A stretch of DNA of 35,621 nucleotides from Prolixibacteraceae bacterium. Lineage in GTDB: Bacteria; Bacteroidota; Bacteroidia; Bacteroidales; Prolixibacteraceae. The notes below the pieces were generated by a model. The model ran no database searches. It had not been told where the DNA came from and worked only from the letters and a program-made list of their open reading frames with translations. Both the position numbers and the translations under genes were made by a program. Numbering within the stretch: the first letter of the stretch is position 1; each line of letters begins with the position of its first letter. This document shows positions 2,087 to 35,621 of the stretch, piece after piece. The DNA is taken from NCBI GenBank assembly GCA_028282195.1, contig JANQII010000287.1, positions 1 to 35,621 on the forward strand. The letters run 5' to 3'.

Positions 2087-3640
2087 ATGGCGCAGGAAGA
2101 TGTTTTTAAGAAGCTGATTGCCCACTGCAAAGAGTATGGATACGTGTTTCAATCGAGTGAAGTTTATGACGGGCTTGGTGCAGTTTATGATTATGGGCAA
2201 AATGGCGTTGAGCTAAAAAACAACATTAAAAAATATTGGTGGGATAGCATGGTGCTGTTGCACGAAAATGTAGTTGGAATTGACTCTGCTATTTTTATGC
2301 ACCCTACTATTTGGAAAGCTTCCGGCCATGTGGATGCGTTTAATGATCCGTTAATTGACAATAAAGATTCCAAAAAAAGATACCGTGCTGATGTTTTAAT
2401 TGAAGATCAGCTTGCCAGGTTCGAGGAAAAAATGAACAAGGAAGTAGCCAAGGCAAAGAAACGCTTTGGTGATGCTTTTGACGAAAGGCAATTCCGCGAT
2501 ACAAACCCTCGTGTACTGGCCAATCAGCAAAAATGGAATGACTTACACGAGCGTTTTTCTAAAGCATTAAACGATAATAATCTGGAAGAATTAAAACAGA
2601 TTATTGTTGATCAGGAAATTGTTTGTCCGATTAGCGGAAGCAGAAACTGGACTGATGTTCGCCAATTTAACCTGATGTTTGCTACAGAGATGGGATCAAC
2701 TTCTGATGGAGCCATGAAAGTTTACCTTCGTCCTGAGACAGCGCAGGGTATTTTTGTAAACTACCTGAACGTTCAGAAAACCGGACGAATGAAAATCCCT
2801 TTTGGAATTGCACAGATTGGTAAAGCTTTCCGTAACGAAATCGTAGCACGTCAGTTTATTTTCCGTATGCGTGAATTCGAGCAAATGGAAATGCAATTCT
2901 TTGTGCGCCCCGGATCAGAACTTGATTGGTTTGAAAAATGGAAAGAAACCCGGATGAAATGGCATAAAGCACTTGGATTTGGAGATGATAATTATCGTTT
3001 TCACGAGCATGAAAAACTGGCTCATTATGCCAATGCAGCAGTAGATGTTGAGTATAAATTCCCATTTGGGTTTAAAGAAGTTGAAGGAATTCACTCCCGT
3101 ACTGATTTTGACTTATCCCAGCATCAGGAATATTCAGGGAAGAAGATTCAATATTACGATCCGGAATTAGGAGAATCATATGTACCCTATGTTGTTGAGA
3201 CTTCAATTGGTGTTGACCGTATGTTCCTTCAAGTGATTTCCGCTTCGTATTGTGAAGAAGAAGTGGAGGCTGCAAATGGTAAAAAAGATACCCGTGTGGT
3301 ATTGAAACTTCCGGTAGCGCTAGCTCCAATTAAACTGGCAGTAATGCCGCTTGTTAAGAAAGATGGTCTTCCTGAAAAAGCAAGGGAAATTATTGATGAC
3401 CTTAAGTTTGACTTCAATTGTCAGTATGACGAAAAAGATTCTATCGGTAAACGTTACCGTCGTCAGGATGCAATTGGTACACCTTTCTGCGTTACCGTTG
3501 ATCATCAAACGCTGGAAGATCAAACAGTAACTATTCGTTCCCGTGATACAATGGGGCAAGAACGAGTTACTATCGATAAATTGAAAGGCATTATTTCAGA
3601 ACAAACCAGTATTAAGGCTTTGTTTGAGAAATTGAAATAG
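2087..3640 (+). CDS. glyS: Glycyl-tRNA synthetase (alpha2 type)
   Basis: Class II aminoacyl-tRNA synthetase that charges tRNA-Gly. At 517 aa it is the single-chain homodimeric type found in Bacteroidota, archaea and eukaryotes, not the alpha2-beta2 GlyQ/GlyS type. The N-terminal part has the typical GYVFQSSEVYDGLGAVYDYG motif 1 region. Next come YLRPETAQGIFVNY, motif 2 as FRNEIVARQFIFRMREFEQ, and motif 3 as VVETSIGVDRMFL. The C-terminal anticodon-binding domain begins around LAPIKLAVMPLV and includes GKRYRRQDAIGTPFCVTVD. It starts at ATG 2087. The region after the stop carries a MITE-like repeat and, nearly 500 bp on, a plus-strand terminator. Confidence 0.97.
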   Translation: MAQEDVFKKLIAHCKEYGYVFQSSEVYDGLGAVYDYGQNGVELKNNIKKYWWDSMVLLHENVVGIDSAIFMHPTIWKASGHVDAFNDPLIDNKDSKKRYRADVLIEDQLARFEEKMNKEVAKAKKRFGDAFDERQFRDTNPRVLANQQKWNDLHERFSKALNDNNLEELKQIIVDQEIVCPISGSRNWTDVRQFNLMFATEMGSTSDGAMKVYLRPETAQGIFVNYLNVQKTGRMKIPFGIAQIGKAFRNEIVARQFIFRMREFEQMEMQFFVRPGSELDWFEKWKETRMKWHKALGFGDDNYRFHEHEKLAHYANAAVDVEYKFPFGFKEVEGIHSRTDFDLSQHQEYSGKKIQYYDPELGESYVPYVVETSIGVDRMFLQVISASYCEEEVEAANGKKDTRVVLKLPVALAPIKLAVMPLVKKDGLPEKAREIIDDLKFDFNCQYDEKDSIGKRYRRQDAIGTPFCVTVDHQTLEDQTVTIRSRDTMGQERVTIDKLKGIISEQTSIKALFEKLK

Positions 3641-3685
3641 AAGAATTACAGGCTATGAAGTTGTCAAAAGTTAAATGACAATATT

Positions 3686-4972: not shown

Positions 4973-5494
4973 AAGCCAAAAGTTTTGATTAAACAGTTAT
5001 TTTGAGCCTATTAAATTTATAAAAATAACTTACGCTGAGAAAAATTAACTTAGTTTTTCTTGTTTGTCTTAGTGTTGTGTTTGATTAATTCCATTCTGTT
5101 TATTGTCAAATAACTTTCTTTTTTCAGTATGCACTTATAAATTTCTGTAATTTGTGAGCATAGCTATTGGATTGAATTAGAGTTGCTAAATATTTAGCAA
5201 CTCTGACATTTTTTAACTTGCATTAATTCAGGTGTTTATAGTTTTAAATTTATAAAATGTGTTGTAAAACATATGACTTTAAGATTATAAGCAATGTTGA
5301 TATTTTTCTTGATTTAAGTGGGATTTTTATCCTTTTTGAGTTATAAAATCAGCCAATTTTTAGATTTTGCTTACAATTTGGAAGAAGGCTTTTAAAGGCT
5401 AATAAAAAATATGGAGTTTTGTCAGTTTTTTAGGTGTATGGAGAATCTATTTTTGCCGCCGTCCATAAGAGATAAACAATTAAAAAAGTTAGCT
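4973..5494. other. Divergent intergenic region, ppk2 to secreted protein
   Basis: About 520 bp of AT-rich DNA with no credible ORF or RNA gene recognised. Its main landmark is the 26-bp perfect palindrome at 5179-5204. Regulatory sequences for ppk2 (minus) and the following gene (plus) must lie here, but no perfect TAnnTTTG box could be fixed for either. Confidence 0.6.
5179..5214 (+). repeat. 26-bp perfect palindrome followed by a T-run
   Basis: The half-site AGAGTTGCTAAAT (5179-5191) is followed without spacer by its exact reverse complement (5192-5204). Four bases later comes a run of six T. As RNA read on the plus strand this resembles a terminator, but no plus-strand gene lies upstream. 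As DNA it could be an operator between the divergent genes. Confidence 0.75.
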
Positions 5495-6011: not shown

Positions 6012-6945
6012 ATTTCAAAAACGGATGATAATCTCCAACCAAACCAACTGGATTTGAGTTAGCAATTTCATGGGTCAATAAAATGCATGGTTTAGCTTCC
6101 TGCAAGCCAAAGCCCTTCCCTTGAAGGATGTTCAGATACGATTTAGTATGCAAGTTTGTAAACCCTTCACTAAATTCGGTTTCTTCTCCTTCAATGGTTA
6201 TTGAACGGTAAGTACGAATTCCCTGAACTTTTGTTTTTTCAGGTATATCATTATAATCAAGGCTTAAATACCAGCGAACATTTGCATTTTCTAATTCAAG
6301 AAATCCGGCAGCCTTGTCGTGTTCAAATTTGTGAACAACACTATTTTTAACTTCTCCAAAAATCCAACGGAGCATATCAAAAAAGTGAATGCCAATGTTA
6401 TTAGCCACCCCTCCTGACTTATTGATGTCACCTTTCCAACTTTTGTAGTACCATTTTCCCCGGGAAGTAATGTAAGTTAGATCAATGTCATAAACTTTAT
6501 CTTTTGGGCTATTTTTTATCTTTTCCCTTAAGGTAATGATGGAAGGGTGCAAACGTAATTGAAGAATATTGAAAACCTGTTTGCCAGTTTCTTTTTCTGC
6601 TTTTTCAATGTCGTCAAGTTCTTTGGGATGAAGAACAAGCGGTTTCTCACAAATAGCAAATGCCCGGTTGTTTAAAGCGAACTGAATGTGTTGCGCGTGA
6701 AAATGATTGGGTGTACAAATGCTCATGTATTCGATTGGCGAATCCGTTTGTTGTTGTTCTGCAACAAACTGCCCAAATTTATTAAAATCAAGATAAAACT
6801 CAGCTTGAGGAAAATAGCTGTCCATTCTTCCCATTACATCAAAAAGATCTGTTGCTGCAATTATCTGGTTGCCGGTTTCTTTTACAGCTCGCATGTGTCG
6901 CTCAGCGATAAAACCAGCTGCACCAATCAGGGCAAAATTCTTCAT
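6010..6945 (-). CDS. wbpB: UDP-GlcNAcA 3-dehydrogenase (WbpB/WlbA-like)
   Basis: Gfo/Idh/MocA-family oxidoreductase; WbpB/WlbA oxidises C3 of UDP-N-acetylglucosaminuronic acid to the 3-keto sugar using tightly bound NAD. The Rossmann fold starts with ALIGAAGFIAERH (residues 5-17), followed by SICTPNHFHAQH and the catalytic-region EKP (100-102). GGVANNIGIHFFDMLRW carries the family's active-site histidine region. The ATG at 6943-6945 gives 311 aa; a TTG nine bases upstream is less likely. It lies 120 bp downstream of the wbpA-like gene and completes a four-enzyme set with the three genes before it. Assignment to WbpB, not another Gfo/Idh/MocA enzyme, rests strongly on this neighbourhood. Confidence 0.88.
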   Translation of the reverse strand: MKNFALIGAAGFIAERHMRAVKETGNQIIAATDLFDVMGRMDSYFPQAEFYLDFNKFGQFVAEQQQTDSPIEYMSICTPNHFHAQHIQFALNNRAFAICEKPLVLHPKELDDIEKAEKETGKQVFNILQLRLHPSIITLREKIKNSPKDKVYDIDLTYITSRGKWYYKSWKGDINKSGGVANNIGIHFFDMLRWIFGEVKNSVVHKFEHDKAAGFLELENANVRWYLSLDYNDIPEKTKVQGIRTYRSITIEGEETEFSEGFTNLHTKSYLNILQGKGFGLQEAKPCILLTHEIANSNPVGLVGDYHPFLK

Positions 6946-7066
6946 ACGTTTCAATTATAAATTTTAACTTCTATATTTCAAAAACCAAACAACGGTATAG
7001 GATTCGCTTAAAAGATTTAATCATTTCTAATTCTACATAATGATGAAATTATTCATGTTTATTTCA

Positions 7067-8377
7067 TTATAGTTTGTAAACGTTTTCGGATGGTTCTTTA
7101 ATAAGGTTCTTTAAATCAACAATCAGCTTAGAGTGCTCCTTGATATATTCAGCATCAAAGACATCGTGCTTGGTACTGATTACAACACAATCCATGCTAT
7201 TTAAGAACTCAGGAGTGAACTCACTTGAATTGTATAACCGGCCTTCATCAGTTTTTATTTCAGAAATAAAAGGATCGTGGTAATAAACATCGCCACCTTT
7301 TTTAGCCGTTTCATCAATTATTTTTAGTGAAGGGGACTCCCTTTCGTCGTCAATGTTTGGTTTGTAAGCAACACCTAAAAATAAAATCTTACTACCATTG
7401 ATTGCTTTTTTATGGCGGTTCAATGCTGATGTTATTTTGAGAGTCATGCGGTGAGCCATCATATTATTGATGTGCCCTGCGGCATGGATCATACTTAAGT
7501 CAAAACCAAATTTTTTGGCGATGTGTTCAAGGTAGAACGGATCAAGAGGGATGCAGTGACCCCCAATTCCAGGGCCAGGGTAAAAGGCCTGAAACCCATA
7601 CGGTTTTGTTTTAGCAGCATCAATAACTTCCCAAATGTTAATGTCCATTTTGCCACAGAGCAAGGCAAGTTCATTGATTAAGCTAATGTTTACCAATCGA
7701 TAAGTGTTCTCCAAAATTTTAACCATTTCAGCAATACGGGGTGAACTGACTGAATAAACTGATTCAATGACTTTTTGGTAAACCGCTTTACCAATCTCGA
7801 GTCCATCATCGTTCATTGCTCCGATTACTTTAGGAGTATTTCGGGTGTCAAATTGTTTATTACCCGGATCAACCCGTTCAGGCGAAAAAGCCAACCAAAA
7901 ATCTTTACCTTCTTTTAAACCGGATTTTTCTTCCAAAATTGGCAAAATGAAGCTTTCTGTTGTTGTTGGGTAGGTCGTACTTTCAAGACAAACAAAAGTA
8001 CCTTGTTTCAAATACGCTCCAATTGTTTCACAAGATTCCTGAATATAGCCCATGTCTGGTTTCTTAAAAATATCAAGTGGAGTTGGAACACAGATCAATA
8101 TTGCATCGCATTCAGCTAATTTTGAGAAATCGGTTGTTGCTTTTAGCTTGTCATTTTTTACAACCTGCTCCAAATCTTCATCTTTTACATCGCCGATATA
8201 ATTTTCTGCAGCATTTACCTGTTGTACTTTTTCTTCGGATTTTTCAAATCCGATCACCTGTATGTCTTCAATTGCAAAGCTCACTGCTAAAGGCAATCCA
8301 ACATAGCCAAGCCCTATTACACCAACCAGTTCTTCTGACTTATTGATTTTATCCCGTATATTTTGTTTCAGCGTCAT
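7067..8377 (-). CDS. wbpA: UDP-N-acetylglucosamine 6-dehydrogenase (WbpA-like)
   Basis: Nucleotide-sugar dehydrogenase of the UDP-glucose/GDP-mannose DH family; WbpA-type enzymes oxidise UDP-GlcNAc at C6 with two NAD to UDP-GlcNAcA. The 436-aa protein has the NAD-binding [12 protein letters not shown] (residues 20-31), [29 protein letters not shown], the [11 protein letters not shown] lysine/asparagine site (K220) and the catalytic cysteine in GGHCIPLDP (C275). The C-terminal part [16 protein letters not shown] is also standard. Its ATG overlaps the wbpD-like stop by four bases (ATGA), showing translational coupling. WecC-type UDP-ManNAc dehydrogenase is the main alternative; the WbpB/D/E neighbours favour WbpA. 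Confidence 0.9.
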
Positions 8378-8940
8378 GCTTTAATAATTTCAAGTTGATC
8401 ATTAACAAGCTTATACTTTTCACCAGTTTCCGGACAAATAAGTTTTTCACCCAAAATTACCCCGGCCTTACTGACCCAGCCTTTTTGAACAGCCGGAACA
8501 CCAACCATTAATGCATATGGTTTAACATCTTTTGTAATAACGGCACCGGCGCCAATAAAAGCATATTCGCCAATAGTCACCCCACAAACAACAGTTGCAT
8601 TTGCACCGATGGAAGTACCTTTTTTTACTACTGTTTCATCATACTCAGTTTTCCTTTCGACAAACGACCTTGGATTATTTACATTGGTGAACACACAGCT
8701 TGGCCCGCAGAAAACATCATCTTCCAGAATAACAGAATCGTATATGCTTACGTTATTCTGAATTTTCACACGATTCCCAATAACTGCTTTCCCTCCGACA
8801 TAAGTATTCTGCCCAAGAATACATTTTTCACCAATTTGTGCTCCGCTCATCACATGGCAAAAATGCCAGACTTTTGTCCCTTCCCCGATTGATACAGGTT
8901 CATCAATACAAGCAGTCTCGTGTACAAAATAGTTACTCAT
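8374..8940 (-). CDS. wbpD: UDP-GlcNAc3NA 3-N-acetyltransferase (WbpD/WlbB-like)
   Basis: Left-handed beta-helix acetyltransferase that, in the Wbp pathway, acetylates the 3-amino group of UDP-2-acetamido-3-amino-glucuronate with acetyl-CoA. The 188-aa protein is built of hexapeptide repeats (for example [20 protein letters not shown] and [17 protein letters not shown]). It has the loop [15 protein letters not shown] and the closing coil [20 protein letters not shown], then [23 protein letters not shown] short C-terminal extension with [14 protein letters not shown] resembles a small treble-clef tail. It overlaps the aminotransferase gene by 8 bp and the dehydrogenase by 4 bp, so the three are one translationally coupled unit. 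Confidence 0.9.
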
Positions 8941-10030
8941 GATGGAAGTATTTTTTTATGGCATCTGCAACCTGGTGAATTTCTTTTTCCGTAATTAACC
9001 CGTGCAAGGGTAACGAAAGAACTGTTCGCGATAGTTCATCAGCTACCGGAAATTTTTCATTCGGATTAATATCTTTTTTGAAAGCTTCCTGCTTTGGAAG
9101 GGGCAAAGGATAGTGAACTATACTTGGAATTTCGGCTTCTGCCAGGCTTGCTTTCAATTCATCCCGTTTATTAGTACGAATAGTATATTGTGCCCAACTG
9201 CTGGTTCTTCCTTCCTGAATTTCAGGGACACAAACCATATCTTTTAATAGCCCAGTATAAAGTTCAGCAGCTTTATTCCTAATTTCTAATTCTTTGTTGA
9301 AATGTTTCAGTTTCACCCTTAAAATGGCAGCTTGAAGAGTATCCATTCTTCCATTAATTCCAATGTACTTGTGAATGTAACGTTTTACCTGTCCATGCCC
9401 GCGCATTATTTTCATGGTTTCGGCAAGTTGGTCATCATCGGTGAAAATAGCACCACCATCCCCATAACATCCTAGTGGTTTGGCAGGGAAAAAACTGGTT
9501 GTAGCGATATCAGTGAGTGAACATGATTGTTTGCCAAAATATGTAGCTCCAAACGACTGTGCCCCGTCTTCAATAACCCAAAGATTATATTTTTCTGCAA
9601 TTTCATTGATCTTTTTGCAATCGGCACATTGTCCGAAAAGGGAAACGGCAATTATACCTTTCGTTTTTGAAGTAATTTTTTCTTCAATTTTAGAAACATC
9701 CATGTTAAAGTCAATCGGAGAAACATCAACAAAAACAGGTTTGGCTTTGTAAAAGCTAATCATCGATCCGGATGCGATATAACTAAATGCAGGACAAATA
9801 ATTTCATCTCCAGGCTGAATATCCCAGGCCATTAAGGGAAGCAGCAAAGCATCAGTACCGGAGCTACAGCACAGTACATTCTTAACGCCAGTGTATTCAG
9901 CTAATTCTTCTTCCAACAAATTAATTTCATTCCCATTAATAAAAGAAGAAGAATTGATCACATTCTGAATGGCAGCATCAATTTCTTTTTTATAAGCCAG
10001 GTATTGTTTGTTAAGATCACAAAATTTCAT
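8933..10030 (-). CDS. wbpE: UDP-3-keto-GlcNAcA aminotransferase (WbpE/WlbC-like)
   Basis: DegT/DnrJ/EryC1/StrS aminotransferase; WbpE transfers an amino group from glutamate to the 3-keto sugar, using PLP. From ATG 10030 it is 365 aa. Visible are the substrate/PLP segment [15 protein letters not shown] (54-68), [12 protein letters not shown] (D155, contacts the PLP pyridine) and the PLP lysine in [17 protein letters not shown] (K184). [20 protein letters not shown] and [12 protein letters not shown] are further family motifs. The TTG at 10054, which would add eight residues, lies in a -7 box, so the ATG is preferred. It is the first gene of the minus-strand run and divergent from the GT2 gene. 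Confidence 0.92.
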
Positions 10031-10051
10031 AGGCGAGGGAATGATATGATA

Positions 10052-10059
10052 CAAAAATA
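10052..10059 (-). promoter_or_regulatory. -7 box for the wbp gene run
   Basis: The minus strand reads TATTTTTG, a perfect TAnnTTTG element, 21 bp before the aminotransferase ATG at 10030. This would make a short leader and drive the minus-strand arm of the glycan island. Confidence 0.5.
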
Positions 10060-10080
10060 AAGTAATTCGGCTAAGTATAT

Positions 10081-10088
10081 TATTTTTG
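10081..10088 (+). promoter_or_regulatory. -7 box for the GT/nonulosonate gene run
   Basis: TATTTTTG on the plus strand matches TAnnTTTG and lies 57 bp before the GT2 ATG. With the minus-strand box at 10052-10059 it suggests back-to-back promoters for the two arms of the island. Confidence 0.45.
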
Positions 10089-10145
10089 CTGAAGATTTTA
10101 CATATAGATAGGTTTCTGTAAAATTGACCTTTTTAAAATGAACGA

Positions 10146-11048
10146 ATGATTTCAGCTATTATTTCGACATATAACCGGGCAAACTATTTACCAGGGCTTT
10201 TTGAATCAATATTGAGTCAGACTGTTAATAAAAAGGAATATGAAATTGTCATTGTAAATAATAACTCTACAGATAATACTGAAGAAATTTGCAAACAGTT
10301 CATGGTTGATCATCCCGGGATAAGTTGTTCCTATTGTGTTGAAATCCGACAGGGGCTTTCTTATGGCCGTAATCGGGGAATCAAAGAATCGAAAGGAGAG
10401 ATTCTTACTTTTCTGGATGATGATGCAGTTATTGCCCCGGATTTTTTTGAGAAAACCATTTCTTTTTTTGAATTGAAACCTTATGTGAATGCCATTGGAG
10501 GAAAAATCTTACTTCAATATATGGAGGAAAAACCTACGTGGTATAACCCTTTCATTGCTCCAATTTTGGGATATTTCAACCCCGGTAATAAAACTGAAAT
10601 CTTTAAACGGAATTTTTTCAGGGGTTCGAATATGTCATTTCGAAAAAAGATCTTTGGAAAGTTGGGTGATTTTGATGTTCGTTTAGGGCGTTCAGGTAAA
10701 AATCTTTACGGGAGTGAAGAAAAAGAGCTTTTTTATCGATTTAAGAATGCCGGAGAAGAAATGTGGTATGTCCCTGAAGCCGTTGTATTTCATTTGGTTC
10801 CCATTGAACGAACGAAAGATGAATTTGTCAGGAGACAGGCTCTTGGGATTGGCAAAAGCGAGCGGGTAAGGAGTCTTGCTCAAAGTAAAATAAAATTTTA
10901 CATAAGCTCTATAAAGGAATTGATGAAATGGGGGGCCAGCATTTTAATTTCAATTTATTATCTGATAACTTTAAAACCTGCATCCTCTCGTATAATTTTA
11001 AAATTCAGAGGGTGGGTTTCACAAGGATTGCTTTTAAATCATGATTAA
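10146..11048 (+). CDS. Family 2 glycosyltransferase
   Basis: GT-A fold, GT2-family glycosyltransferase, expected to add a sugar from a nucleotide donor to a lipid-linked or surface glycan on the inner face of the membrane. The 300-aa protein begins with the classic ISAIISTYNRANYLPGLFESI, followed by IVIVNNNSTDNTEEI and the metal-binding LTFLDDDA (DDD at 91-93). Later FRGSNMSFRKKIF and GSEEKELFYRFKNAG are the acceptor-side motifs of such enzymes. The C-terminal part has a hydrophobic segment (ASILISIYYLITL) that probably associates with the membrane. It overlaps the next gene by 8 bp. Donor and acceptor cannot be told from sequence. Confidence 0.9.
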   Translation: MISAIISTYNRANYLPGLFESILSQTVNKKEYEIVIVNNNSTDNTEEICKQFMVDHPGISCSYCVEIRQGLSYGRNRGIKESKGEILTFLDDDAVIAPDFFEKTISFFELKPYVNAIGGKILLQYMEEKPTWYNPFIAPILGYFNPGNKTEIFKRNFFRGSNMSFRKKIFGKLGDFDVRLGRSGKNLYGSEEKELFYRFKNAGEEMWYVPEAVVFHLVPIERTKDEFVRRQALGIGKSERVRSLAQSKIKFYISSIKELMKWGASILISIYYLITLKPASSRIILKFRGWVSQGLLLNHD

Positions 11049-12802: not shown

Positions 12803-13953
12803 GTGTAATTGCATTTGTTCCTGCCCGTGCCGGAAGCAAAGGAATAAAAAATAAGAATATTAAGCTATTCAACTCAAAACCTCTTATATTTTGGGTGCTT
12901 AAGGCTTTGCAGGACTGTAATTCAGTTGACGGGATTTATCTGGCTACCGATGGCGATGATATAGCAAGAATTGCTGATGGATTTGGTTTTGATAAACTTA
13001 AAGTTTTCAGGCGTAGTCCTGAAAATGCATCAGATAGTGCTTCAACAGAATCAGTGATGTTTGAGTTTTTTGAAAAAGAAAAACCTTTAAGTGAAGATAT
13101 TTTTTTACTTGTCCAAGCTACTTCACCCTTTACCCAAAATACTGATTTTGAAAGTGCCATCAAACAGTTTAAACAGGAAAAGGCAGATAGTTTACTTTCA
13201 GTTGCCCGACAAAAACGTTTTTTCTGGAATTCTAATGGCACACCGTTGAACTACGATTACAAAAACAGGCCACGCCGGCAGGATTTTGAAGGGATATTGA
13301 TAGAAAATGGAGCTTTTTATATTTCAAAAGTTAAGAACATTTTACAATCAAATAACAGGTTAAATGGTAAAATAAGTCTTTACGAAATGCCGGAATATAC
13401 CAGTTTAGAGTTGGACGAAGATGAAGATTGGTTGATGGGCGAAATAGTAATGCAAAAGTTTAAAAAGAGCGAACTTAATGCTGACCCTTCCCAAATTAAA
13501 TTGTTCCTTTCCGATGTTGATGGGGTATTAACCGATGCAGGAATGTATTATTCTGAAAAAGGAGATGAGTTAAAAAAGTTCAGCACGTACGATGGTATGG
13601 CTTTTAGATTGCTAAAAGAAAAAGGGATAAAAGTCGGGATTATAACTTCTGAAGATTGTGAATTGAACCGTAGAAGAGCCGAAAAACTGAAACTTGATTA
13701 TCACTTCCATGGAGTTAAAAATAAATTAGAAGTCCTTGAAGGGCTTGTAAAAGAGTTAGGAATTTCGTTCAGTCAGCTTGCATACATTGGCGATGATATC
13801 AATGACCTGGAAGTTCTCCGTGAAGTAGGGATAGCAGCTTGTCCTGCAAATGCAAGAGCAGAAGTGAAGTCGATTCCGGGGATAGTCGAATTGGAAACTA
13901 AAGGAGGGAAGGGTGCTGTGCGTGAGTTAGTAAATAAATACTGGGCTCTATGA
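12799..13953 (+). CDS. CMP-nonulosonate synthetase fused to KdsC/KDN-9-P phosphatase-like HAD
   Basis: Two-domain protein of 384 aa. Residues 1-225 are a NeuA-type cytidylyltransferase that would activate a nonulosonic acid as its CMP sugar: VPARAGSKGIKNKNIKLF (8-24), LATDGDDIA, LLVQATSPF and ENGAFYIS. Residues 235-384 are a C0-type HAD phosphatase: LSDVDGVLTDAGMYY (nucleophile D239, acid D241), IITSEDCELNRRRAEKLK, GVKNKL (K309) and YIGDDINDLEVL. This second half is patterned like KdsC and the KDN-9-phosphate phosphatase of Bacteroides thetaiotaomicron. The same order of domains occurs in animal CMAS. It suggests the upstream synthase makes a 9-phosphate that this protein dephosphorylates and then activates. 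Overlaps its neighbours by 4 bp each. Confidence 0.9.
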   Translation: MSVIAFVPARAGSKGIKNKNIKLFNSKPLIFWVLKALQDCNSVDGIYLATDGDDIARIADGFGFDKLKVFRRSPENASDSASTESVMFEFFEKEKPLSEDIFLLVQATSPFTQNTDFESAIKQFKQEKADSLLSVARQKRFFWNSNGTPLNYDYKNRPRRQDFEGILIENGAFYISKVKNILQSNNRLNGKISLYEMPEYTSLELDEDEDWLMGEIVMQKFKKSELNADPSQIKLFLSDVDGVLTDAGMYYSEKGDELKKFSTYDGMAFRLLKEKGIKVGIITSEDCELNRRRAEKLKLDYHFHGVKNKLEVLEGLVKELGISFSQLAYIGDDINDLEVLREVGIAACPANARAEVKSIPGIVELETKGGKGAVRELVNKYWAL

Positions 13954-15986
13954 TTGAATGTGTTGTATGTAAATCCCCAACTAGCGAAAAGAAATATAAT
14001 TCGAGGAACGAAAATCTTTTAACTTTAAATAGGTGTAGTAAATGTGGACATTTATTTCAGGATATTGAAAATTATGAAGACATCTATTCTGATGGAAAAT
14101 TCACAAAAATTGCACGTGAAAGTGAAATAGTTCCCGGTGACAAAAAGATTAAGAATTTAGATGATATAGCATTTAAACGATTTAATTTTTACAAACCTCT
14201 TTTAAAAAAAGAATCTAAGGCACTTGAGATTGGAAGTTCAATTGGTTCTTTTGTCCATTTGCTAAAGTTGTATGGAATTCAAGCCAATGGCATAGAACCC
14301 GATCCACATTATTGTGATCATTCAGTAAAACAATATGGTTTTGCACAGGTCAATAGCTCTCTGGAAAGATATGAAAGTGATCAAAAATATGATCAGATTT
14401 TTTCTTTTCATGTGGTAGAACATGTAAAAGATCCAATCCTATTTATTGAGAAAATTTGTTCACTCTTGACTCATAATGGAATCTTATTTTTAGAATGTCC
14501 TTCGCAAGAAATATCTGAATATGGGAACAAACAGCAGATGATATGGGAACCACATATTCATTATTTCAGTTCTACTTCAATTTATCAGTTACTTTCAACT
14601 TCGTTTTCAAAAGTTAAAATATCATATCGTGGAGGAGGTCTTTCTGTTATTGCTGAAAAACCAATTAAAAGTAATTTGAAAAAGACACAATTACTTTTTG
14701 AAAAGATTAAACAAAGTTTTATTTCAGGTTTAGTTTTTTTGACGCCGCAATTTAAGAGTTATGAAAAGATCAATAGTTTGAGAAGATTGATTATTCAGTT
14801 TTTAATTGAACGAAAACTTTTCAAATTTCGAATGAAGCGAAGTGTTAAATTTGGTTTGTACAAGATTAAGGAACACAATTACCTGAAAAAAGAAAATGGA
14901 ACCGGAAAACAAAGAATTACTCACATAACAAATTTCAAAGGATGGGGAAATAATGCAGGGGACATTGTGCTTTCAAATTGTGTTAGAAATACAATAAAGA
15001 GTGAGGTAAGTTCAAATTTTAATATTCAAAGCGTTGCTAATGAAGTTAATGAAAAACTTATTCGTGATATAAACGAATCTGATGCATTGCTAGTTGGGGG
15101 TGGCGGATTATTTCTCCCAGATACGAATAAGAATTCAATATCGGGTTGGCAATGGGCAATCAGCAAATCTCAAATTGATCAAATTGATTCAAAAGTTCTA
15201 TTATATGCCATTGGTTATAATTATTTCCCGGGGCAATCCCCCAATGAATTATTTGTAGATAGCCTTAATTGCATTATCAAAAAAGCTGATTTCGTTGGCA
15301 TACGAAACAAAGGGAGTATAAATGCAATCAAGGATTTGCTTACTGACAAATCGTTATCAGATAAAATATCTTACCAGCCTTGTCCTACAACAGTTATAAG
15401 AAAGAACTTCAGCAATATTAAAGCAAAGAAGAAGACCAAAAACATAGCAGTTAATATTGCATTTGACCGGTACGAAAGAAGATTTGGAGATGGGATATAC
15501 GATAAGCTGTACTCAATAGCTATAGCTTTAAAGACGATTGAAAATTATTCGTATAATATTTATAATGTTTGTCATTTGACTGTTGATGAAAAAGCTGAAA
15601 TAGTTTTTGACAGGGTCGGTTTAAAATATACAACAGTTAGGTTGCAACATATGCTTCCCAATGAGATTTTTGACTTTTATAGTAAGATGGAAGTGGTTTT
15701 TGGTATGCGCGGACATGCACAGATGATTCCATTTGGGGTAAATACTAAAATAATTACTTTAGGTACACATCGTAAAATGAAGTGGTTTTTGGAAGATATT
15801 GATATGATGGAATTGTTTATTGATGTATCAGAATCTGAGAATGTTTATAATGATATTATTGAAAAATTTGAATACATCATGAATAATGATGAACAGGTTT
15901 CTAATCAGTTAATAAGTGAACAAGAGAAACTGTATGCTGTAACGAAAGATAATCTTGAGAAAATTAGCAATATTATAAAAGCTTAA
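13950..15986 (+). CDS. Methyltransferase-polysaccharide pyruvyltransferase fusion
   Basis: A 678-aa two-part protein. The N-terminus has a zinc-ribbon-like CVVC...CSKC (C4, C7, C29, C32), then a class I SAM methyltransferase-like domain: LEIGSSIGSF (92-101), E116 in GIEPDPH, and SFHVVEHVKDPILFIEKI. After a basic linker (about 240-320) comes a polysaccharide pyruvyltransferase domain: RITHITNFKGWGNNAGDIVL (322-341), DALLVGGGGLF, ADFVGIRNKGS and FGMRGHAQMIPFGV. Pyruvyltransferases add ketal pyruvate from PEP to glycan sugars. The normal family has only the second half (300-400 aa). The gene follows the CMP synthetase with a 4-bp overlap and meets the flippase tail to tail. Methyl acceptor and sugar target are unknown. 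Confidence 0.85.
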   Translation: MIECVVCKSPTSEKKYNSRNENLLTLNRCSKCGHLFQDIENYEDIYSDGKFTKIARESEIVPGDKKIKNLDDIAFKRFNFYKPLLKKESKALEIGSSIGSFVHLLKLYGIQANGIEPDPHYCDHSVKQYGFAQVNSSLERYESDQKYDQIFSFHVVEHVKDPILFIEKICSLLTHNGILFLECPSQEISEYGNKQQMIWEPHIHYFSSTSIYQLLSTSFSKVKISYRGGGLSVIAEKPIKSNLKKTQLLFEKIKQSFISGLVFLTPQFKSYEKINSLRRLIIQFLIERKLFKFRMKRSVKFGLYKIKEHNYLKKENGTGKQRITHITNFKGWGNNAGDIVLSNCVRNTIKSEVSSNFNIQSVANEVNEKLIRDINESDALLVGGGGLFLPDTNKNSISGWQWAISKSQIDQIDSKVLLYAIGYNYFPGQSPNELFVDSLNCIIKKADFVGIRNKGSINAIKDLLTDKSLSDKISYQPCPTTVIRKNFSNIKAKKKTKNIAVNIAFDRYERRFGDGIYDKLYSIAIALKTIENYSYNIYNVCHLTVDEKAEIVFDRVGLKYTTVRLQHMLPNEIFDFYSKMEVVFGMRGHAQMIPFGVNTKIITLGTHRKMKWFLEDIDMMELFIDVSESENVYNDIIEKFEYIMNNDEQVSNQLISEQEKLYAVTKDNLEKISNIIKA

Positions 15987-17485
15987 TCTTTTGTTGGCCT
16001 TTCATTATTTCCGATAGTTTTTTGTAAAAACTGACCAATCATTTTGTTTAAATTTTCCGATATCCTAAAAATCAATACACCCACACCAAAAACAACACTT
16101 ATAACAATACTTCTCAGAAGAAGATCAATCATCCAGTTTGAGAAAGTTGGGATGATATAGTTTGAAAGGAACGCAACAGCTGAAATCACTATTAAAACCA
16201 AATGTTTGCTTTTATAGGGGAATAAATTCATTTTACTTTTCAGGTAGATAATTCGGATTACAGTATAAATCCCCATCGATATAAGCGATGCTAATGCAGC
16301 ACCATCAATTCCCATGATTGGTATAAAAACCAGGTTTGTTATAACCGCAAGGATAATCAGGATTGAGAGCTGGTATGTTAATACTTTGTATTTAATTGAA
16401 GTTCCCAAAATCTGAAGGCTGACACCGGAAGAAACTGTAATCAAATTCCCAAGCGATATATACAAAATTACCATACTTCCATTTGCATATTCCTCAGGCA
16501 GAATCTGAAATACATTATGCAGATTTGCAATCAATAATATAAAGAGAAAACATCCAGCTATAAATTGGTTGATGCTGCTTTGATAGTAAATGGTGTTAAT
16601 GGTTTTGGTATCATTTTCTTTCCATGCATCAGCAATAATTGGAGAAGATATTTTTGCCAAAGCACGGTTGGGGATAAGGATAATTGTTCCGAAAAAAAAG
16701 CTAATCGTATAAATTCCGGTATGACTTAAGTCCAGGAAACCATTTACCATGATTTTATCAATGGCCTGTAAAGCTACACCGCTTAAACCACCTATTATTC
16801 CGAAAGCAGCAACCGTAATTATTTCTTTTCGGAAAGATTTGCTGATGAAATTTAATTGCGGTTTTAAGTTTAACTGACCTCTTGCAATGAGTAGAATCGC
16901 AAGGTAAATGGCTGGAAAACAAAGCGCAAAAGTATAACCAACGACATACCCAAAGAAGTTGATCCAATCCAGGAAATAAGCACCCAATAAGATCAGATTG
17001 ATAAATCGATAGGCAAAATCACTTAAAAAAGTCCCGGTAGTTGCATCGTAAAGAACTTTGTTATAGTTGTCAAGTAAAAGAAAGAATCCCCTAAAGAAAA
17101 TAAGTGGAACTAAAAACCAAATATAGTCTACCAGCAAAGGAGATTTTTCAATGTTATTTTCAATCAGGTATGGCTTCAAAATAAAAAAGACAGCAAATGC
17201 CAAAATAAATCCAATTAAACCAACTGCAATTGTAAGGAAAGCAAATCCATGATGGTTTTTATCTGAATTTCTGAAATAAGGGAAAAGCCTTGTTGCAACC
17301 GATCCAAAACCTAAACTGGAAAACTGGGCATAAATAGCAGAAATTGCAACCAGAATACTAACCAGACCTATTTCTTCTTCAAGAAGTATGTTGGGCATAA
17401 TAATACCGGTAGCCAAAAAGCCAACAATAACACCCAGGTACGAGTATATAGAACCTTTTATTGTTTGCCTTTGAATGATGCCCAT
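15983..17485 (-). CDS. Wzx-like polysaccharide flippase
   Basis: Multi-pass membrane protein of the MOP/polysaccharide-synthesis exporter group, expected to flip undecaprenyl-linked repeat units across the inner membrane. The 500 aa are almost wholly hydrophobic, with roughly 14 predicted segments. The start IIQRQTIKGSIYSYLGVIVGF and the early SSLGFGSVATRLFPYF match the N-terminus of this family; the NRALAKISSPIIADAWK loop is also typical. The stop codon overlaps the stop of the pyruvyltransferase fusion (4-bp tail-to-tail overlap), so it belongs physically to the glycan island but is transcribed the other way. Substrate specificity cannot be read; a Wzy polymerase is not seen in the window. 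Confidence 0.88.
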   Translation of the reverse strand: MGIIQRQTIKGSIYSYLGVIVGFLATGIIMPNILLEEEIGLVSILVAISAIYAQFSSLGFGSVATRLFPYFRNSDKNHHGFAFLTIAVGLIGFILAFAVFFILKPYLIENNIEKSPLLVDYIWFLVPLIFFRGFFLLLDNYNKVLYDATTGTFLSDFAYRFINLILLGAYFLDWINFFGYVVGYTFALCFPAIYLAILLIARGQLNLKPQLNFISKSFRKEIITVAAFGIIGGLSGVALQAIDKIMVNGFLDLSHTGIYTISFFFGTIILIPNRALAKISSPIIADAWKENDTKTINTIYYQSSINQFIAGCFLFILLIANLHNVFQILPEEYANGSMVILYISLGNLITVSSGVSLQILGTSIKYKVLTYQLSILIILAVITNLVFIPIMGIDGAALASLISMGIYTVIRIIYLKSKMNLFPYKSKHLVLIVISAVAFLSNYIIPTFSNWMIDLLLRSIVISVVFGVGVLIFRISENLNKMIGQFLQKTIGNNERPTKD

Positions 17486-33594: not shown

Positions 33595-34032
33595 ATAATA
33601 TCCCAGCCAACTGAAAACCAAAGTGTTTCTTTATAATAAAGAATTATTTTTTAAGAATAGTTTTTTACAAACAAACATTAAAATAGCATATCAAAGCAAC
33701 ATGTTCAATTCGCAAACGATCAAAAAAATGTTATTAAACATTGTTAGGAATAGTTCAGTCTATTTTTCCAATAATCAGCTATTTATGATTTTAATCCAAA
33801 ATAATTATAAGTAGTGATCTTGATTTTATAAATACAAAGTAATAAATTTATGTTGTGTTTGTTTAAGAAAGTTTTTATAATTGCAATGAGCCGCCCTATT
33901 AATCTGTAAGTAAGAGGAATAGCAATAAGGATTGAATGTGTGGCTAAGAATAACAGGACTCATTTGATAATCATAGATAATATCAAGATTAATAATGAAG
34001 TTTGATTTTACATACAACCGTTTCGTGAAGTA

Positions 34033-34133
34033 GGCCGCACCGGGTTTTGTACACCCTGCCGGTCTGGAAAATCTGCCGGGTATGGCCTGCCGGTGCGGTC
34101 TGCCCTGTTTGAACAATTTAACGTTAAACAGGG
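34033..34133. repeat. GC-rich patch with nested inverted repeats
   Basis: CCGCACCGG (34035-34043) pairs with CCGGTGCGG (34090-34098) and encloses repeated CTGCCGG units. Just after, CCCTGTTT (34103-34110) pairs with AAACAGGG (34126-34133). The composition contrasts sharply with the AT-rich surroundings, which suggests an inserted palindromic repeat. Confidence 0.6.
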
Positions 34134-34171
34134 ACAAAGAGTTGGAGCTTTTCCATCTTTCAATGGACCAG

Positions 34172-34221
34172 CCTTACACGTATGTAATTTTATTGTACAT
34201 GCCCATGTAAGGTTATATTTT
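34172..34221 (+). promoter_or_regulatory. Putative promoter and inverted repeat for the leader-peptide gene
   Basis: TTG at 34193-34195 is followed after 18 bp by TATATTTT (34214-34221), close to the Bacteroidota TTTG / TAnnTTTG promoter, with an expected RNA start about 35 bp before the ATG at 34262. An imperfect inverted repeat overlaps it: CCTTACA (34172-34178) with TGTAAGG (34206-34212) and an inner TATGTA/TACATG. A regulator binding this repeat would cover the promoter. Confidence 0.45.
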
Positions 34222-34261
34222 TCCACAAAATTAAGTTTTTAACCGTTTAAAACGAATTATT

Positions 34262-34438
34262 ATGAAAGAATTGAGTTTTGAAAAAATGGAAGAGGTACAA
34301 GGTGGTGGATGGTCTTGGTCGGGTTGTCTTGGAGGAGCGATAGGAGCAGGTTTGACTCCAGTTATCGCGACGATGTGGAATCCGTGGTTGGCTGCTGGTG
34401 TGTTAGCAATTGGTTGTGTTAGTGGAGGTATATATTAG
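34262..34438 (+). CDS. Double-glycine-leader peptide, putative class II bacteriocin
   Basis: A 58-aa gene. The first 15 residues, MKELSFEKMEEVQGG, form a classic double-glycine leader (charged, with L4, M9 and V12 spaced as in such leaders, ending GG) that C39-peptidase ABC exporters cleave. The predicted 43-aa core, from GWSWSGCLGG to AIGCVSGGIY, is rich in Gly, Ala and Trp. It has cysteines at core positions 7 and 37 that could form one disulfide, and small-residue motifs (GGAIGAG, LAAGVLAIG) like those of membrane-inserting class II bacteriocins. The next two genes encode small membrane proteins. Bacteriocin activity is inferred; a signalling peptide is an alternative. No processing transporter lies within the window. 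Confidence 0.75.
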   Translation: MKELSFEKMEEVQGGGWSWSGCLGGAIGAGLTPVIATMWNPWLAAGVLAIGCVSGGIY

Positions 34439-34455
34439 TACCAATAGATAATTAA

Positions 34456-34494
34456 GAAGTACCTTTTCATACTTTGTATGGTACAAGGTACTTC
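34456..34494. terminator. Hairpin after the leader-peptide gene
   Basis: GAAGTACCTT and AAGGTACTTC are a perfect 10-bp stem, and CATAC/GTATG forms an inner stem around TTT. It lies 18 bp after the peptide stop and 16 bp before the next ATG. No T-run follows, so it may be a partial terminator or RNA stabiliser that raises peptide expression over the downstream genes. Confidence 0.6.
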
Positions 34495-34509
34495 ACAATC
34501 TTTGAGATA

Positions 34510-34788
34510 ATGCAAACTATATTAATAACTATTTCTATCTATGCATTGAATGATTTTTTATTCCTTTTGGGAGGATTATTTGCAATCATCTATGGTTTTA
34601 TCGCTTTTTGCGGGTTTCTGTTAAATATAAGACATTTGGACAAATTATTTTACACAGGTTGGATAAAAAATCAAAAACCTTATGGGGTTGTGTTGTTATA
34701 TTATGTTGTTTGTAGCATATTCCTTATTACTATAGGATGTATCCTGATATTCTGTGAAGTGGAAATCACTTCTCCGTTTATGTATTGA
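34510..34788 (+). CDS. Small membrane protein, candidate immunity protein
   Basis: Not recognised. From ATG 34510 it is 92 aa, with two N-terminal hydrophobic segments (ILITISIYALNDFLFLLGGL running into FAIIYGFIAFCGFLL), a basic loop (NIRHLDKLFYTGWIKNQKP) and a third membrane helix (VVLLYYVVCSIFLITIGCIL) before a short tail. A TTG 36 bp upstream would start within the hairpin and is rejected. Position directly after a double-glycine peptide and small multi-pass form are the usual marks of bacteriocin immunity proteins; the function is inferred from context only. Confidence 0.6.
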   Translation: MQTILITISIYALNDFLFLLGGLFAIIYGFIAFCGFLLNIRHLDKLFYTGWIKNQKPYGVVLLYYVVCSIFLITIGCILIFCEVEITSPFMY

Positions 34789-34895
34789 TATAGTATTATG
34801 TAACAATGAAACAGAGTTAATTCCTTTTTCTATATTCTTAAGGATAGGGTAAAAAGTTGAATCCTTTCTTTAAACAAATCCATATAAACCCTATA

Positions 34896-35300
34896 ATGAA
34901 AAATAAAATCGAAAAAAATCTGGAAAGGTTTCAATATAAATATGTAAAGAATGATAAGTCGATTATTATTGATCTTGGACTGAGACAAGAAGTAACAGTT
35001 ACATTTACTAAAGATACTGAAATTAGCATAACTGATAAATTAAAATCCGGAAATATCCTTACAGGATTTTTAGAGATGAGCTTAAAAAAAGTGATCGTTT
35101 ACCATTCAGTTCTTATAGCGGTGACCGTATTGTTTTTATTTTATCTATTTTATTATACGGGCTTGAATATTAATACCAACTTATCCATTATAATTATTAT
35201 TTCTATTCTGGGGTTGGGGTATTTGTTATTTTGGTACAATTATTATCATATTAAGGCAGAGAGCTTCAAGCGGACATTAATGAGTTGGCTCAATGATTAA
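34896..35300 (+). CDS. Small two-helix membrane protein, unknown
   Basis: Not recognised. From the ATG at 34896 the product is 134 aa: a charged N-terminal domain of about 65 residues, rich in Lys and beta-strand-like alternation (SIIIDLGLRQEVTVTF; TEISITDKLKSG). Two membrane helices follow (VIVYHSVLIAVTVLFLFYLF and LSIIIIISILGLGYLLFW), then a short basic tail. An in-frame TTG at 34857 would add 13 residues and is less likely. It follows the 92-aa membrane-protein gene in the same direction and may be a second immunity or accessory protein of the peptide locus. The function is unknown. Confidence 0.55.
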   Translation: MKNKIEKNLERFQYKYVKNDKSIIIDLGLRQEVTVTFTKDTEISITDKLKSGNILTGFLEMSLKKVIVYHSVLIAVTVLFLFYLFYYTGLNINTNLSIIIIISILGLGYLLFWYNYYHIKAESFKRTLMSWLND

Positions 35301-35318: not shown

Positions 35319-35597
35319 TGTCTGCTCATACTATTTTGTAATTGTTATTTTTCAGTTTTACCGGCATTTGCAGTCAGTTACCTTTTCATCTCCGATGATT
35401 TGTATTATCTGAGCCTTGGGGAACAACTGGCAACTGAGCGCATTACCAATATGTTGGATATAGCAAAAAAATGGCAATGGCTGGGTTACACCTTTATCCC
35501 GGTGATCGTTTTTTTACGTGTAAGTTTTACCTCGATATGTCTTTTTTCCGGGGTTTTTATTGCAAATGTCAAAACCTCGATTATGGGATTAATTTAG
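35319..35597 (+). pseudogene. Decaying membrane-protein gene fragment
   Basis: An open frame from 35319 to the stop at 35597, with no ATG in its first part, reads SVLPAFAVSYLFISDDLYYL, then SLGEQLATERITNMLD and KKWQWLGYTFIPVIVFLRVS. This looks like a real membrane protein: a helix, a conserved-looking extracytoplasmic loop and more helices. A start-like ATG at 35293 (MIKSLQSYN) is in a different frame, as if a frameshift lies near 35340. Past the stop the same frame continues IVL-stop, suggesting further decay. It could instead be a sequence error or a gene using an upstream non-ATG start; the window ends 24 bp later. Confidence 0.4.
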
Positions 35598-35621
35598 ATT
35601 GTGCTTTAAAACATAACCAAT

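What the first reader, a model, noticed from the sequence alone, without database searches (positions are those of the whole stretch)
34262..35300. Unannotated double-glycine bacteriocin-like peptide with candidate immunity genes
A 58-codon gene encodes the leader MKELSFEKMEEVQGG and a 43-residue Gly/Ala/Trp-rich core with two cysteines. Two small membrane-protein genes follow in the same direction. Class II bacteriocin leaders of this form are cut by C39-peptidase ABC exporters (established for the family). That this one is an antimicrobial is inference. Such systems are little studied in Bacteroidota, and the gene is below usual ORF-length cut-offs.
Basis: partly seen in the sequence, partly recalled or inferred. 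Interest (0 to 1): 0.82.

Follow-up and report, generated by a model that had tools for sequence, protein, structure and literature searches.

The report
Secreted bacteriocin-like peptide with leader RNA
A small gene at the end of this contig most likely makes an exported, disulfide-bonded peptide weapon of the kind known as bacteroidetocins, beside likely self-protection genes and behind an undescribed switch-like RNA leader that also precedes genes for other exported proteins.

Summary
In detail: the 58-aa ORF (34262-34438) has a leader scoring 47.2, against 1.9 for the next window ORF and at most 16.1 in 100 shuffled windows. The contig ends 1.2 kb later; its last 99 bases are the first 99 of contig C100, which carries a second such peptide, a 5-TM protein, a CXXC thioredoxin-like protein and a C39 ABC exporter: the published bacteroidetocin gene set (PMC6671954). 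GG peptides were found in 40 of 46 loci with this machinery; 61 of 64 peptides have at least two cysteines. Leaders are conserved, cores hypervariable (identity 0.55, 0.17). Unlike described bacteroidetocins, small membrane proteins usually follow the peptides, and companion type tends to follow core type (7/12 versus 29/1164 pairs), as for immunity genes. Upstream lies an element with no Rfam match: a short ORF ending N[KR]F[VI]-stop against a covarying hairpin, usually 170-215 nt before the start codon, in 23 (type 1) and 28 (type 2) of 140 family genomes. It precedes GG-peptide and, more often outside the training set, Sec-like genes. Killing, immunity and leader function are untested.

The parts
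33995..34033 (+). uORF MKFDFTYNRFVK-stop, the stop abutting the hairpin
   Evidence: coordinates counted; last codons N[KR]F[VI] conserved in relatives with mostly synonymous variation
34013..34180 (+). leader RNA element (covariance model R1 match, 109.2 bits; the window is one of the 14 sequences R1 was built from)
   Evidence: no Rfam family for 33700-34300 up to E 10
34034..34099 (+). hairpin P1: arms 34034-34043 and 34090-34099
   Evidence: 22 elements; covariation
34103..34133 (+). extra hairpin, an insertion between P1 and P3 seen in this copy only among the 14 of alignment A5
   Evidence: coordinates counted
34136..34160 (+). hairpin P3 of the leader element
   Evidence: coordinates counted
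34262..34438 (+). GG-leader peptide gene (leader 34262-34306, core 34307-34435, stop 34436-34438)
34510..34788 (+). 92-aa membrane protein, candidate cognate immunity protein
34896..35300 (+). 134-aa protein, soluble N-terminus plus 2 hydrophobic segments, candidate immunity protein of another peptide type
35349..35606 (+). decayed partial copy of the 5-TM gene (79% to residues 20-105 of the C100 protein, one stop inside)
35523..35621 (+). contig end identical to C100:1-99, where the locus probably continues

Best explanation
The gene makes a precursor whose 15-residue leader is recognised and cut after Gly-Gly by the C39 domain of the ABC exporter encoded on the adjoining contig. The 43-residue hydrophobic core is exported, and its two cysteines are joined or proofread with the help of the thioredoxin-like protein and the 5-TM protein. 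Outside the cell it acts as a bacteroidetocin-like antibacterial peptide against related Bacteroidota. Small membrane protein(s) encoded just downstream protect the producer. The locus holds two such peptide modules (34262 and C100:463), a tandem duplication in which leader and upstream DNA stayed alike while core and companion diverged. Expression is probably gated by the 5' leader: a ribosome finishing the N[KR]F[VI]-stop uORF would cover the 5' arm of hairpin P1. Shown by computation: ORF, leader family, linked machinery, cysteine pattern, a tendency of companions to follow cores, leader covariation and uORF coding signature. Inferred: contig linkage beyond the overlap, cleavage, disulfide, killing, immunity, attenuation.
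For: Leader far above chance. Machinery on C100: 5-TM protein (model with five long helices, pLDDT 79.6), CXXC AhpC/TSA-type protein, C39 ABC with PF03412 111.7 bits. The ABC's closest solved relatives are named 'ABC-type bacteriocin transporter' (4ry2 group, E 3.4e-102); Cys19, His96 and Asp112 (my count) align with the same letters there, their catalytic role being recalled. For bacteroidetocins, deleting the TM, peptide or oxidoreductase gene attenuated activity, a transposon in the ABC gene marked the region, and the four genes sufficed in E. coli (PMC6671954, passages). 40 of 46 loci with the 5-TM protein plus Trx or C39 hold at least one GG peptide, and 61 of 64 peptides have 2 or more Cys. 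Leader identity 0.55 against core 0.17. Companion similar in 7 of 12 core-similar pairs against 29 of 1164 others; 0 of 5000 permutations reach 7. In one pair core and companion are alike although the 5-TM proteins are distant (L012 of this genome and L062; 5-TM similarity 0.22). KFWG-type peptides with 4 and 2 Cys, fitting the published description, sit beside 5-TM and C39 homologues in L172 and L179.
Against: The C178-C100 link rests on one exact 99-base end overlap, without read support; the own-genome search that showed it scored 40 of 65 candidates. The nearest core homologue has QGR at the cleavage site. The six other genomes of the genus gave no match to the peptide. 5 of 12 core-similar pairs have no similar companion, the window's own peptide with L146 among them, and one of the 7 positive pairs is two peptides of one locus (L145). 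29 companion-similar pairs have dissimilar cores, the window's 134-aa protein with L073 among them. Phylogeny is controlled only by a breakdown on 5-TM similarity. 7 of 31 family peptides have no 45-180 aa ORF within 450 nt. Published bacteroidetocin regions have no obvious immunity gene and producers are inhibited by their own toxin (PMC6671954), so companions may do something else. The peptide's own model is low confidence (pLDDT 58.9). The locus contains a decayed gene copy, so this module could be on the way out.
Confidence: 0.68

Rival explanations
1. The peptide is a secreted signal (pheromone) rather than a toxin, exported by the same machine.
For: Small proteins with a GG secretion motif control biofilm formation in a cyanobacterium (PMC4997328, abstract in a search listing). 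The leader element also precedes Sec-like proteins, so it is not toxin-specific.
Against: Cores are hypervariable (0.17 mean identity), several different peptides share one locus, and companion type tends to follow core type. No receptor or regulator family appears among the ten C100 proteins scanned.
Confidence: 0.15
2. An ordinary two-peptide class IIb bacteriocin of the lactobin A/cerein 7B type, the C100 peptide being the partner.
For: TIGR03949 21.6 bits against cut-off 21.5; two peptides in one locus; Gly-rich core.
Against: The C100 peptide has no TIGR03949 match up to E 0.1. Of ten relatives scanned, two matched it and both below cut-off. Many loci show a single peptide. The accessory genes are those of bacteroidetocins.
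Confidence: 0.07
3. A decaying remnant with no present function.
For: A partial, stop-containing copy of the 5-TM gene lies next to it. The other six genomes of the genus gave no match. The closest homologue has a changed cleavage site.
Against: Peptide, leader, companion ORFs and uORF are open. The complete machinery stands on C100.
Confidence: 0.08
4. A modified peptide (RiPP), for example glycosylated, rather than an unmodified disulfide peptide.
For: A GT1-like glycosyltransferase gene lies directly before the C39 gene on C100. A Flammeovirga plasmid with 5-TM, redoxin and ABC genes also encodes a LanC-family protein and a glycosyltransferase.
Against: The GT1 gene had no tblastn match (E 1e-3) in the 20 family loci L060-L079.
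Confidence: 0.1

Closest known systems
Bacteroidetocins (Coyne et al. 2019, PMC6671954; Matano et al. 2021, PMC8546649)
   Same: 15-aa GG leader, about 42-aa core with cysteines, linked 5-TM protein, thiol oxidoreductase and C39 ABC; Bacteroidota host.
   Different: Core is a Gly/Ala-rich hydrophobic sequence with 2 Cys; small membrane companions whose type tends to follow core type; DUF2059 and GT1 genes between Trx and ABC; uORF-hairpin leader (not examined in the published loci).
Class IIb bacteriocin, lactobin A/cerein 7B family (TIGR03949)
   Same: Small Gly-rich peptide with GG leader; score just over the cut-off.
   Different: Margin of 0.1 bit; accessory gene set of another type; two-peptide action not tested.
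Class II microcins (colicin V type)
   Same: GG leader and C39 ABC exporter in a Gram-negative.
   Different: Colicin V export needs a membrane fusion protein and TolC (PMC10352776, passage); no fusion protein among ten C100 proteins scanned.
Leader-peptide attenuators and other uORF-controlled leaders
   Same: Short, apparently translated uORF directly before an RNA hairpin upstream of a gene.
   Different: No Rfam match; uORF motif N[KR]F[VI]-stop; targets are GG peptides and Sec-like proteins; in 393 genomes of the order type 2 was found in 3, one outside the family. Regulation itself is not shown.

Membership tests
Bacteroidetocin system | 15-16 aa leader ending in GG | tested here: met
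Bacteroidetocin system | mature peptide of about 42-53 aa | tested here: met
   43 aa; ranges from PMC6671954 section 14 and a PMC8546649 passage
Bacteroidetocin system | at least two cysteines (four in A and B) | tested here: met
   two; 61 of 64 related peptides have two or more
Bacteroidetocin system | linked 5-TM protein, thiol oxidoreductase and C39 ABC | tested here: met
   on contig C100, linked by a 99-base end overlap. The 5-TM profile also finds the TM gene of KFWG-peptide loci L172 (9e-13) and L179 (4e-15)
Bacteroidetocin system | core sequence similar to bacteroidetocins A-D | not tested
Bacteroidetocin system | no immunity gene in the region | tested here: inconclusive
   two small membrane-protein genes follow and companions tend to follow cores, but immunity is untested
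Bacteroidetocin system | kills Bacteroidota through BamA | not testable with these tools
   -
TIGR03949 class IIb lactobin A/cerein 7B | NCBIfam cut-off 21.5 bits | tested here: met
   21.6 bits, residues 2-31
TIGR03949 class IIb lactobin A/cerein 7B | two complementary peptides act together | not testable with these tools
   second peptide on C100 does not match the model up to E 0.1
PF10439 Bacteriocin_IIc | Pfam gathering score 27.1 | tested here: not met
   24.7 bits
Known RNA family (Rfam 15) for the leader | match to any of 4227 models | tested here: not met
   window 33700-34300 up to E 10; L062, L063, L064, L068, L070 up to E 1, no hit at the elements

The most novel reading that the evidence does not exclude
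The 5' element is a new class of cis-regulatory leader: a translated uORF ending N[KR]F[VI]-stop whose terminating or stalling ribosome controls a conserved hairpin, co-ordinating secreted antibacterial peptides with other exported proteins in Prolixibacteraceae. Behind it sits a bacteroidetocin-type export machine that serves swappable peptide-immunity modules.
Probability: 0.5. Interest if true: 0.78.

Novelty: new variant of a known kind. Interest (0 to 1): 0.6.

Why it matters
It would extend bacteroidetocin-type weapons to environmental Prolixibacteraceae and supply a large natural set of core sequences with likely immunity partners, which the described bacteroidetocins lack. The uORF-hairpin leader gives a sequence handle for finding such genes, which are short enough to fall below usual ORF-length cut-offs, and poses a testable regulatory question: what, if anything, the N[KR]F[VI]-stop uORF senses.

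Tried and rejected
The 5-TM protein has no significant PDB fold match (46 matches with E up to 10, none up to 0.001). It has no Pfam family at E 0.1, and its only NCBIfam match is far below cut-off. A Yip1-like fold was considered from memory and not shown. The peptide's AlphaFold model is too weak to use. No peptide match in phage records. The plasmid collection gave one 5-TM homologue, on a Flammeovirga plasmid with redoxin, ABC and LanC neighbours, and none for the L172 TM protein. The GC-rich upstream palindrome was first taken for a mobile repeat; 1-4 matches per genome, near-constant spacing to a start codon and the codon signature argue against that. The idea that the leader is specific to bacteriocins was rejected: leaving out the training elements, 6 of 29 type-1 and 4 of 25 type-2 targets are GG peptides, while 19 and 17 are Sec-like. 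The Sec call is crude: 173 of 330 long ORFs in the same loci also pass, against 36 of 40 non-GG targets that have an ORF (p 1.5e-6, related genomes not corrected for). Papers: searches for Prolixibacteraceae or Draconibacterium with bacteriocin, lactobin A/cerein 7B with Bacteroidetes, and uORF/leader terms listed nothing on this locus or element ([12 of 17 listed], 91, 103, 104); only listings were seen.

Full report
What is there. The window is contig C178 of a 5.84 Mb, 348-contig genome. The finding's gene, 34262-34438, encodes MKELSFEKMEEVQGG followed by a 43-residue Gly/Ala/Trp-rich core with two cysteines. A position matrix from 52 leaders of other loci gives it 47.2, against 1.9 for the next of 199 window ORFs and at most 16.1 in 100 shuffled windows. 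NCBIfam TIGR03949 is reached at 21.6 (cut-off 21.5) and Pfam PF10439 is not. Two small membrane-protein genes follow (34510-34788, 34896-35300). After them comes a partial, stop-containing copy (35349-35606) of a gene for a 214-aa membrane protein.

Where the exporter is. The last 99 bases of the window equal the first 99 of contig C100; no third place was reported, 40 of 65 candidates having been scored. C100 carries, in order: a second peptide gene (463-651, leader MKELSLERMEEVHGG), a 133-aa companion, the intact 214-aa protein, a CXXC thioredoxin-like protein, a DUF2059 protein, a GT1-like glycosyltransferase and a C39-peptidase ABC exporter. Upstream and leader DNA of the two peptide genes align closely, up to the end of the leader codons, and then diverge. 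This looks like a tandem module duplication. The genome has eight C39 matches in all. A second, diverged trio is on C327 with its own peptide (L012). Four other C39 stretches of this genome (L010, L011, L013, L015) show no 5-TM or Trx homologue.

Relatives. The 214-aa protein matches 34 of 140 family genomes, 19 of 395 of the class and 13 of 393 of the order; each count includes this genome. Stretches were read for 28 of the 34; the other six had weak matches only (E 3.5e-6 to 8e-4). A scan of named genomes gave 22 loci, among them Draconibacterium orientale, D. aestuarii, Maribellus maritimus and Prolixibacteraceae MAGs; four of these (L083, L101, L103, L104) entered the scripts, since the rest appear to be the same contigs as G-handle loci. 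I take the window's family to be Prolixibacteraceae because G047's contig has the length and match place of D. orientale NZ_CP007451.1. Of 69 loci scanned, 46 have this protein plus Trx or C39, and 40 of the 46 hold at least one GG peptide; the six without are L066, L072, L148, L159, L174 and L175. For that count L173 was left out, L065 and the window were added by hand, one regex hit was dropped and five peptides were set by hand. The loci are not independent: window, L014 and L012 are one genome. Of 64 peptides, 61 have at least two cysteines. Leaders of 15 aa (58) share 0.55 identity on average, cores 0.17.

Closest known system. Coyne et al. 2019 (PMC6671954; outline, passages and section 14 read) describe bacteroidetocins: a 5-TM protein, a small GG peptide with a 15-aa leader and 42-aa core, a thiol oxidoreductase and a C39 ABC exporter. 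Loss of the TM, peptide or oxidoreductase gene attenuates activity, the four genes suffice in E. coli, and no obvious immunity protein is encoded. Their target is BamA (PMC8546649, abstract and passages). The present locus has that set. My profile of the 214-aa protein also finds the TM gene of loci L172 and L179 (E 9e-13 and 4e-15), whose peptides begin KFWG and carry four and two cysteines and so fit the published description. I could not compare published letters. The thioredoxin gene was detected in L179 but not in L172. The predicted 214-aa structure has five long helices (pLDDT 79.6) and no PDB match. The C39 ABC aligns full length with solved ABC-type bacteriocin transporters.

The leader element. 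Upstream of many family peptide genes lies a conserved element. A short uORF ends N[KR]F[VI], sometimes with one more residue, and its stop codon abuts or nearly abuts a 10-bp hairpin. In the window these are 33995-34033 (MKFDFTYNRFVK-stop) and 34034-34099. Type 1 (arm GCCGCACCGG) has 43 matches in 23 of 140 family genomes; type 2 (GCCTCCCCGG or GCCTCTCCGG) has 38 in 28 of 140. A type-2 search of 393 genomes of the order found 3, one outside the family; type 1 was not searched there. These searches used the stricter filters. Coding test on 44 aligned rows (43 type 1, one type 2): minority letters at codon positions 1, 2, 3 of N-K-F-V are 11, 6 and 67; an in-frame stop follows within two codons in 42 of 44, as TAA, TAG or TGA. 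By a simple pattern the uORF motif is present in 39 of 43 type-1 and 25 of 33 type-2 elements. Structure test: 9 of 19 pairs show changes on both sides against 1.2 in shuffles and at most 3 in slid versions (the alignment was fitted to the model, and rows are related). RNAalifold on the 14 type-1 sequences alone gave only one such pair. Between types, pairs 4 and 6 of the stem change together (22 elements). Exceptions: L173 has lost the stop frame, L073 and L181 each have two mismatched or changed stem positions, and L219 and L236 lack the in-frame stop. No Rfam family matches.

Targets of the element. Of 43 type-1 elements, 19 precede a GG peptide, 19 a Sec-like protein, 3 another ORF and 2 none. 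Of 33 type-2 elements read (of 38), the numbers are 12, 17, 1 and 3. The models were trained on elements that, but for one, precede GG peptides; without the training elements the GG counts are 6 of 29 and 4 of 25. Sec-like calls are crude but exceed the local background (36 of 40 against 173 of 330, p 1.5e-6). The distance from element start to ATG lies between 200 and 212 nt for 29 of 38 type-1 GG/Sec targets; type 2 is mostly 157-231; the window's is 249 because of its inserted hairpin. I read this as a leader of genes for exported products, acting by an attenuation-like mechanism that is inferred only.

Verdict. The uORF-hairpin leader is the most novel part. That it is undescribed rests on Rfam and on the paper searches.

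Noticed in passing
L012 (G000:C327), 13164-17246 minus strand: Second, diverged trio (5-TM, Trx, C39) in the same genome with a peptide ending its leader in SAG and a 96-aa membrane companion; core and companion both match L062.
   Followed up: partly
L010 (G000:C294), 5335-5472 and 7828-7965: Two short GG-leader peptides with longer leaders near another C39 exporter, where no 5-TM or Trx homologue was detected.
   Followed up: no
L181 (G000:C247), 3005-3663: Third copy of the leader element, with uORF MSLIICNSINRFI, before a 140-aa hydrophobic protein of unknown kind.
   Followed up: partly
L014 (G000:C100), 6795-10163: After the exporter: two CarboxypepD_reg-like proteins (about 80% alike) separated by a 212-aa protein weakly related to the 5-TM family; proteins of that look also follow peptides in L172, L179 and L214.
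   Followed up: partly
L213, L216, L219, L220, L234: A family of about 242-aa proteins (MKKIILFLL...) recurs downstream of the leader element in several genomes.
   Followed up: no
L154 8184-9306 and L155 1490-1624: Short Cys-rich GG peptides (mostly four cysteines), five of them in a row in L154, beside the same machinery.
   Followed up: no
L284 263-2000 and L232: TFWG/TFFG-type peptides, resembling the KFWG type, also lie behind the type-2 leader element.
   Followed up: no
L290 (Flammeovirga pectinis plasmid NZ_CP034564.1), 5902-12543: 5-TM, redoxin and ABC genes followed by LanC-family and glycosyltransferase genes, suggesting a modified-peptide version of the system.
   Followed up: no
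L161-L171: Distant homologues of the 5-TM protein with no C39 or Trx homologue detected nearby.
   Followed up: no
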